From: Proteles cristata cristata
Lineage: Eukaryota > Chordata > Mammalia > Carnivora > Hyaenidae
Length of the DNA: 64,000 nucleotides
Direction of reading: 5' to 3'
Assembly: GCA_017311185.1 (NCBI GenBank)
Contig: JAESUZ010004533.1
Coordinates: 186,001 to 250,000 of the forward strand
The translations under genes and the position numbers were made by a program. The notes beneath the pieces were generated by a model. It was given only the letters and a program-made list of their open reading frames with translations. It had not been told where the DNA came from and did not search any database. Below, piece after piece: positions 4,376 to 52,878 of this stretch; the stretch's first letter is position 1, and each line of letters begins with the position of its first letter.

Positions 4376-4716
4376 AACTTTTCTGTTTTTTCTTAGCCAG
4401 CCTAGTGTCCATCTTTACATGCTCCTCTTGCCATTATTCTAGACTCTACAAATGCTTATCCTTCTGATAAATCCTCCTTAACTTCTCTGCTTCATTATCA
4501 GGTAAGTGGAGCAGGAAAACTGACAAAATTACTTGCACCTGAAGTCAGTCAGGTGCACTCAGCTAGTGTTTTTCCAACTGAGACACAACCCATCAATGAG
4601 CTCAGTCTAGTGAGTTTTTTGGGGTGTTTTTTTTAGGTTAAATAGGATGGAGTAGAAAGCATTCATCTCAGAAAGGAAGAGTAAGTATTGTTTCATGAAT
4701 CTTTTGTGTTAGTTAT
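4376..4716. other. Unassigned sequence
   Basis: AT-rich and repeat-poor. Nothing recognised. Confidence 0.4.
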
Positions 4717-4750
4717 ACACACACACACACGAAAAACACACAGACACACA
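4717..4750. repeat. Imperfect (AC)n microsatellite
   Basis: AC units interrupted by gaaa and aga. Confidence 0.85.
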
Positions 4751-4921
4751 TTATGTATGTGTTGGGCCACAATATAAAAGGCATTTCTCTTTTTTAATGT
4801 TTATTTATTTATTGAGAGAGAGAGAGAGAGAGAGCGAGTGAGGGAAGAGCAAAGAGAGAGGGGGAGAGAGAATCCCAAGCAGGCTCTGCATTGTCAGCAC
4901 AGAACCCAACAAGGGGCTTGA

Positions 4922-4994
4922 TCTCATAAACCATGAGATCAGGTGCCTTCTTAGCGCAGTGGGCAGCACGTCAGTCTCATAAACCATGAGATCA
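4922..4994. repeat. 20-bp perfect direct repeats flanking the tRNA insertion
   Basis: tctcataaaccatgagatca occurs at 4922-4941 and again at 4975-4994 with no mismatch. In other copies of this SINE the corresponding segment occurs once, so this is a duplication made at insertion. Confidence 0.9.
4945..4982 (+). pseudogene. 5' half of elongator tRNA-Met (CAT), retroinserted
   Basis: These 38 bases read as the 5' half of an elongator tRNA-Met: acceptor strand gcctt, then ttagcgcagtgggcagcac (D arm), gtcag, and the anticodon loop ctcataa with anticodon CAT. From my memory of mammalian tRNA-Met about 35 of 38 positions agree. It stops exactly at the 3' edge of the anticodon loop and has no 3' half, CCA or poly(A). 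The last eight bases (tctcataa) are shared with the SINE target. Three extra bases (ggt, 4942-4944) precede it. It cannot fold as a tRNA, so it is not a tRNA gene. Family precedent: tailless retropseudogenes made from truncated tRNAs. Confidence 0.85.
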
Positions 4995-5570
4995 TGACCT
5001 GAGCCAAACCATGACCTGGACACTTAACTGACTGAGTCACCCAGGCACCCCACTGAGTTTTTTTTCTTCATGTAACTTAGCACACTTTCTATCTCAGTAT
5101 ACACATGTCCACATAATTCTTTAAATTGCTCTATAATTTTACATAGTATAGACTTAATTTCCCTTTCTCCCACTAATGGGTATTTAGATTGTTTTCGGAG
5201 TTTGGCCATTACAGATAATACTGCTATAAAAAGCTTTCTACATATATTGGATCATAACTGAGAGATCCAATCTATCTGTTGGATAGATACTTAAAAGTGG
5301 AATTGCTGGTCAAAGAGTATATGCATCTAAAATTTCAATAGATACTGCCAATTGTCTTCCAAATAACTGTAGCCAACTTATATTTCCATAAAGACCTTTT
5401 CCTGATACTCTTACACTAACATTGAATGTTTAACATTTGCAAATCTGATTGTAAAAAGCATCCAATTGTTGCTTTTTTGCATTCTTTTGATCAATAGTAA
5501 TCCCAATCATCTTTTCACAAGTCTAGTGTGAAAAGTTTTGGTGAAATACTTGTTTTATCTTTGCCTATTT

Positions 5571-52511: not shown

Positions 52512-52878
<367 letters not shown>

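What the first reader, a model, noticed from the sequence alone, without database searches (positions are those of the whole stretch)
4922..4994. Captured 5' half of tRNA-Met inside a SINE, flanked by 20-bp perfect repeats
Bases 4945-4982 read as the 5' half of elongator tRNA-Met and stop at the 3' edge of the anticodon loop, where tRNAs are cut into halves. There is no poly(A). A 20-bp duplication (4922-4941, 4975-4994) brackets it, and the tRNA's last eight bases (tctcataa) match the target. This suggests that a tRNA half annealed to the nicked target and primed its own reverse transcription. Tailless retropseudogenes from truncated tRNAs are described in mammals. A case cut at the anticodon loop, with microhomology, inside a tRNA-derived SINE is a clean example. 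The three extra bases (ggt) could be untemplated additions.
Basis: partly seen in the sequence, partly recalled or inferred. Interest (0 to 1): 0.75.

Follow-up and report, generated by a model that had tools for sequence, protein, structure and literature searches.

The report
Tailless pre-tRNA-Met copy inside a SINE
An old repeat element was interrupted when the front part of a methionine tRNA, most likely still an unprocessed precursor, was copied into the DNA; this is a known kind of genomic scar, and about fifty sister copies in the same genome show where its puzzling extra bases come from.

Summary
A perfect 20-bp direct repeat brackets an insert; 4945-4982 equals elongator tRNA-Met positions 1-38. 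All 45 other SINE matches in the window that span the site lack the insert. It is a tailless retropseudogene, a class described by Schmitz 2004 (recalled) and Noll 2015. It is no one-off, and 'pre-cut half plus untemplated ggt' is not the better reading. A pattern blind to leader and endpoint finds 53 places in the host genome (control 0): 2 full-length, 51 truncated. Of the 51, 36 start with AGGT, 33 stop at A38, and 44 have scoring target duplications. The human tRNA-Met-CAT-1-1 gene has AGGT directly upstream (primer in PMC8942118), so ggt is most likely the 5' leader of a pre-tRNA. Four AGGT copies run past position 39 (to 41-54): internal priming on a precursor fits better than a pre-cut half, though a precursor cut at A38 is not excluded. 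The 8-nt microhomology may be 3-4 nt of priming plus chance. Not testable here: the donor gene (no canonical elongator gene was found in this assembly), the orthologous empty site, and the age.

The parts
4795..5052 (-). Host SINE (tRNA-derived, carnivore/felid CAN type; the type name is recalled) that was interrupted
   Evidence: 56 other blastn matches in the window; differs from the consensus of its ten nearest copies at 29 of 178 sites
4922..4941 (+). First copy of the target site duplication (20 bp as read; 15-16 bp if the nick lay after 4925 or 4926)
4941..4944 (+). AGGT: most likely the 4-nt 5' leader of the pre-tRNA. The A (4941) is also the last base of the duplication, so the leader is GGT or AGGT
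   Evidence: AGGT in 36 of 51 truncated copies; AGGT upstream of human tRNA-Met-CAT-1-1
4945..4982 (+). Elongator tRNA-Met positions 1-38 (5' half through the 3' edge of the anticodon loop)
   Evidence: 33 of 38 to the human sequence, shuffles at most 24; 36 of 38 to the TC isodecoder type
4975..4982 (+). Eight-base overlap: tRNA 31-38 and start of the second duplication copy (possible priming region; TAA at 4980-4982 is the register commonest in the family)
4975..4994 (+). Second copy of the target site duplication

Best explanation
A tailless retropseudogene. An elongator tRNA-Met precursor that still had its short 5' leader (AGGU) was used by the L1 reverse transcriptase. The bottom strand of an existing SINE was nicked, and its free 3' end paired with the open anticodon loop of the RNA (at least UAA, tRNA 36-38; at most UCUCAUAA, 31-38). 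The cDNA was copied to the 5' end of the RNA, and the staggered second cut gave a duplication of 15-20 bp. Shown: the anatomy, the empty paralogous sites, the recurrence of leader and endpoint. Inferred: L1 as the machine, the precursor state of the RNA, and priming within an uncut RNA.
For: Perfect duplication and no tail. Empty SINE paralogues, 45 of 45 that span the site. 51 truncated copies in the genome, 36 with AGGT, 33 ending at A38, 44 with a duplication score of 11 or more against 2 of 210 mismatched pairs. In the 44, the second repeat begins at tRNA 36 in 20, TAAA follows the nick in 19 and the overlap is 3 nt or more in 29, close to the site TT/WAAAA that Noll 2015 gives for this class. 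AGGT is gene-encoded upstream of human tRNA-Met-CAT-1-1. Four AGGT copies stop at 41-54. Initiator tRNA-Met, whose loop also ends in CATAA, gave 4 truncated copies of 11 matches, 2 of them ending exactly there.
Against: The window's own site does not look like an L1 site at the 20-bp boundary (GA/TCTC, log2 odds -6.8) and only moderately so at the alternative (CA/TAAA, 3.5; family median 4.85). No canonical elongator gene was found in this assembly, so the leader is matched to a human gene only; the one full-length place that ARAGORN calls tRNA-Met, L010, has TGCA upstream. The window copy is TC type, in which only 6 of 15 copies have AGGT, and its A is shared with the target. One of 4 truncated initiator copies also has AGGT directly upstream (L074, AGAGGT), which a gene-specific leader does not predict by itself. 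tRNA-Asp also gave 2 copies truncated at the anticodon, so UAA is not needed. 7 of 51 copies have no scoring duplication.
Confidence: 0.75

Rival explanations
1. A 5' tRNA half, already cut in or beside the anticodon loop (as angiogenin-type nucleases do), was the template and its 3' end annealed to the nicked target.
For: 33 of 51 copies end at one base, A38, and 42 of 51 at 32-39. A 2026 study of LINE-1 chimeras found mostly half-length tRNAs and proposed cut halves (PMC13174262, passages). A cut precursor, with leader, would give the same sequences.
Against: The leader marks a precursor, while the known halves come from mature tRNA (recalled). Four AGGT copies run on to 41-54. Ends share 3 or more bases with the target in 29 of 44. 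Noll 2015 found no RNAs ending at the breakpoints of 5S and U2 copies.
Confidence: 0.18
2. AGGT is not a leader but bases added in the reaction, for example by template switching or by the reverse transcriptase at the 5' end.
For: AGGT occurs with three isodecoder types (19 of 22 T, 11 of 14 C, 6 of 15 TC) and before one initiator copy (L074).
Against: A fixed 4-base word in 36 of 51 insertions is not untemplated addition; other copies have other short words (AAGT, ACCT 3 each, ATCT, TATC and more); the human gene encodes AGGT.
Confidence: 0.06
3. Not an insertion: a variant SINE with a chance resemblance to tRNA-Met. The SINE is itself tRNA-derived, and 6 other places match the window over 38 bases that begin TCAGTCTCATAA.
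For: The SINE antisense and the tRNA-Met anticodon arm do share up to 12 bases in some copies.
Against: 45 of 45 spanning SINE matches lack the insert; 33 of 38 against at most 24 in simulated windows; the same tRNA text sits outside this SINE context in dozens of places with other duplications.
Confidence: 0.01

Closest known systems
Tailless retropseudogenes of tRNAs (Schmitz et al. 2004, recalled and as cited, not held; Noll et al. 2015, PMC5322556, parts 1-4 of 5 read)
   Same: 3'-truncated in a single-stranded loop, no A tail, target duplication, end complementary to the target, L1-type sites; unprocessed tRNAs are named there among the sources
   Different: Those sets were screened chiefly in human; here a carnivore-type genome. 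The shared AGGT leader and the A38 peak are counted here for one tRNA; whether either paper reports them I could not check (part 5, supplements and the 2004 paper not seen)
tRNA/LINE-1 chimeric insertions with half-length tRNAs (PMC13174262, 2026, passages seen)
   Same: tRNA pieces of about 1-37 nt inserted with duplications
   Different: Those are joined to LINE-1 sequence, mostly antisense to it; here the tRNA piece stands alone inside a SINE
Tailless non-coding RNA retrocopies in human and chimpanzee (PMC2912911, 2010, passages seen)
   Same: 3'-truncated, mostly without A tail, with microhomology at the 3' junction
   Different: Recent primate insertions and published sets; no leader analysis in the passages seen

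Membership tests
Tailless retropseudogene | Derived from a cellular non-coding RNA, 5' complete or nearly so | tested here: met
   tRNA-Met from position 1, plus 3-4 leader bases
Tailless retropseudogene | 3'-truncated, in a loop or other single-stranded part | tested here: met
   Ends at 38 or before (30-38), in or beside the anticodon loop
Tailless retropseudogene | No oligo(A) tail | tested here: met
   Sequence after 4982 is ACCATGAG
Tailless retropseudogene | Target site duplication of 8-35 nt | tested here: met
   20 of 20 identical
Tailless retropseudogene | RNA end complementary to the target, site near TT/WAAAAWW | tested here: inconclusive
   8-nt overlap, but site GA/TCTC or CA/TAAA; scores -6.8 or 3.5 against a family median of 4.85
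Tailless retropseudogene | Empty orthologous site in a related species | not testable with these tools
   No related mammal genome is held; paralogous empty sites only
Insertion of a pre-cut mature 5' tRNA half | 5' end at mature position 1 | tested here: not met
   GGT or AGGT precedes position 1, as in 36 of 51 copies; in the window the A is ambiguous
Insertion of a pre-cut mature 5' tRNA half | Constant 3' end at the cut site | tested here: inconclusive
   33 of 51 at A38, but 18 of 51 elsewhere (29-59)
L1-made insertion | L1 endonuclease and reverse transcriptase did it | not testable with these tools
   Only site and duplication signatures

The most novel reading that the evidence does not exclude
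The leader works as a natural tag: in this lineage L1 repeatedly copied unprocessed elongator tRNA-Met precursors, and the UAA of the anticodon loop, which pairs with an L1-cut TTTA end, fixed the A38 endpoint. Half-length tRNA insertions of mammals would then be mostly products of priming inside precursors and not records of cut tRNA halves.
Probability: 0.4. Interest if true: 0.5.

Novelty: new member of a known kind. Interest (0 to 1): 0.4.

Why it matters
Two readings of half-length tRNA insertions are in print: internal priming (Noll 2015) and pre-cut halves (the 2026 chimera paper). Copies that carry a precursor leader and yet stop at the anticodon loop bear directly on that choice, and the count can be repeated in any mammal. 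The window copy by itself is an ordinary genomic scar.

Tried and rejected
Rfam gives no tRNA match for the fragment, at E up to 10 on 4700-5200 or at gathering thresholds on the window. ARAGORN's 14 and Rfam's 8 tRNA calls in the window were not studied one by one; many coincide with SINE heads by position. 160 kb around L010 and 20 kb each near L021 and L022 were fetched to look for a tRNA-Met gene with AGGT upstream; none was found besides the matches already known, apart from a weak 3'-half match in L037. A viral-contig pattern scan gave nothing. The first tRNA-Asp control used a divergent printed sequence and gave 1 match. I had expected Asp to lack such ends, so this went against the idea that UAA is needed. 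The figure 34 of 39 AGGT was dropped because the pattern asked for GGT; the leader-blind set replaces it. In one search L021 was scored as truncated at 51; it runs on to the 3' end by eye, so it is left out of the 51. L049 and L051 (DNA search only) are not in the 53; L022, L023, L071 and L072 were skipped by score. The stops at 29 and 31 (L092, L063) may be later indels. Copies with duplication scores under 11 (L017, L019, L060, L070, L090, L092, L098; 7 of 51) were kept in the leader and endpoint counts and left out of the duplication counts. The nick score partly counts the pairing bases themselves.

Full report
What is there. Window 4795-5052 holds a minus-strand, tRNA-derived SINE. Inside it lies a perfect 20-bp direct repeat, 4922-4941 and 4975-4994. 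Between the copies are 33 bases: GGT and tRNA-Met 1-30. The next eight bases (4975-4982) are at once tRNA 31-38 and the start of the second repeat. The 38 bases match human elongator tRNA-Met, as printed in PMC8216282 (passage), at 33 of 38; the best other place in the window reaches 25, and 60 simulated windows reach at most 24.

It is an insertion. Of 56 other SINE matches in the window, 45 span the target and none has the insert; the largest extra stretch is 5 nt. 43 of the 56 were aligned, with the same result; the 13 left out include two short ones that span the site and are empty too. The SINE differs from the consensus of its ten nearest copies at 29 of 178 sites. The two repeat copies differ at 0 of 20. 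The tRNA part differs at 2 of 38 from its isodecoder type, both at CpG, or at 3 if position 17 of that type is A. The insertion thus looks younger than the SINE; I give no date.

It is not alone. The host genome (2.39 Gb in 5412 contigs, unnamed) was searched. Two DNA queries gave 20 and 24 matches, many of them ending at exactly tRNA 38. A pattern for tRNA 1-31 only, blind to what comes before and after, found 53 places with up to 3 mismatches and none in the reversed control. All 53 were read. Two are full-length (L010, L021). Of the other 51, 36 have AGGT directly before position 1; 33 stop at A38; 42 stop at 32-39, 2 earlier and 7 later (40-59). In 44 of 51 the duplication scores 11 or more, which 2 of 210 mismatched pairs reach. 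In those 44, the overlap of tRNA end and target is 3 nt or more in 29, the second repeat begins at tRNA 36 in 20, and TAAA follows the nick in 19.

What 'ggt' is. The same AGGT in 36 of 51 insertions with different targets rules out untemplated bases. The human tRNA-Met-CAT-1-1 gene has AGGT immediately upstream: a published primer reads ACTAGGTGCCTCGTTAGCGCAG (PMC8942118, table passage). The simplest reading is that transcription starts at the A and that the copied RNA was a precursor not yet trimmed at its 5' end. Other copies have other short words (AAGT and ACCT 3 each, ATCT, TATC, TGTC and more), as several genes would give. AGGT is found in 19 of 22 T-type, 11 of 14 C-type and 6 of 15 TC-type copies; the window copy is TC type, and its A is shared with the target. 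Limits: no canonical elongator gene was found in this assembly. The 24-base anticodon-arm pattern has 6 places with at most one mismatch, none of them an intact canonical gene; L010, which ARAGORN calls tRNA-Met, has TGCA upstream. Initiator matches of full length at 97-99% are present. Whether gaps or withheld stretches explain the absence was not tested. One of four truncated initiator copies also has AGGT upstream (L074), which I cannot explain.

Half or precursor? Four AGGT copies run on to 41, 44, 49 and 54 (L054, L053, L052, L009), so one kind of RNA ended in different places, most often where it shares bases with the target. Initiator tRNA-Met, whose loop also ends in CATAA, gave 4 truncated copies among 11 matches, two ending there and two in the T arm. 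tRNA-Asp, without that loop, also gave two copies truncated at the anticodon, so UAA helps but is not needed. Internal priming at open loops is what Noll et al. 2015 favour (PMC5322556, parts 1-4 of 5 read); the 2026 chimera paper suggests pre-cut halves for its cases (PMC13174262, passages). A precursor cut at A38 is not excluded.

How long was the priming? Scored against 43 other copies, the window's nick gets -6.8 (log2 odds) at the 20-bp boundary but 3.5 when placed after 4925 or 4926, with duplications of 16 or 15 bp; the median of the others is 4.85. In that register ATAA or TAA paired, and 4-5 further matching bases are chance. The score partly counts the pairing bases themselves, so it leans without settling. 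Six other places share with the window 38 bases beginning TCAGTCTCATAA, at least three of them in SINEs by eye (L004, L005, L008): some SINE copies resemble the tRNA-Met anticodon arm in antisense. L011 is a second copy that lies in a SINE body, so the SINE setting is not special.

Verdict. A true, well-preserved member of a known class. The phrase 'tailless retropseudogenes' occurs in 17 held papers, none about felids by title or the start of the abstract; one is on canid FGF4 retrocopies. The 2004 paper was not held. The useful addition is the shared leader, which points to a tRNA precursor as the source. I found no report of it in the searches made, but these cover open papers only.

Noticed in passing
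G000 (host genome): No canonical intact elongator tRNA-Met gene turns up in the assembly, while initiator matches of full length at 97-99% and dozens of truncated elongator copies do. Gap, withheld stretch or real: not tested.
   Followed up: partly
L003-L008; SINE antisense: Six places match the window over 38 bases that start TCAGTCTCATAAACC; at least three are SINEs by eye. Part of this SINE family resembles the tRNA-Met anticodon arm in antisense and could be a favoured priming target.
   Followed up: no
window 4919-4941: The target is a near-palindrome (TGATCTCAT-AAACC-ATGAGATCA, 18 of 23 self-complementary), so it could form a hairpin when nicked.
   Followed up: no
L074 (G000:C733:1701337): A truncated initiator tRNA-Met copy has AGAGGT before position 1, ending in the same AGGT as the elongator copies.
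   Followed up: no
window 52780-52875: A perfect (TC)n run directly followed by a perfect (AC)n run.
   Followed up: no
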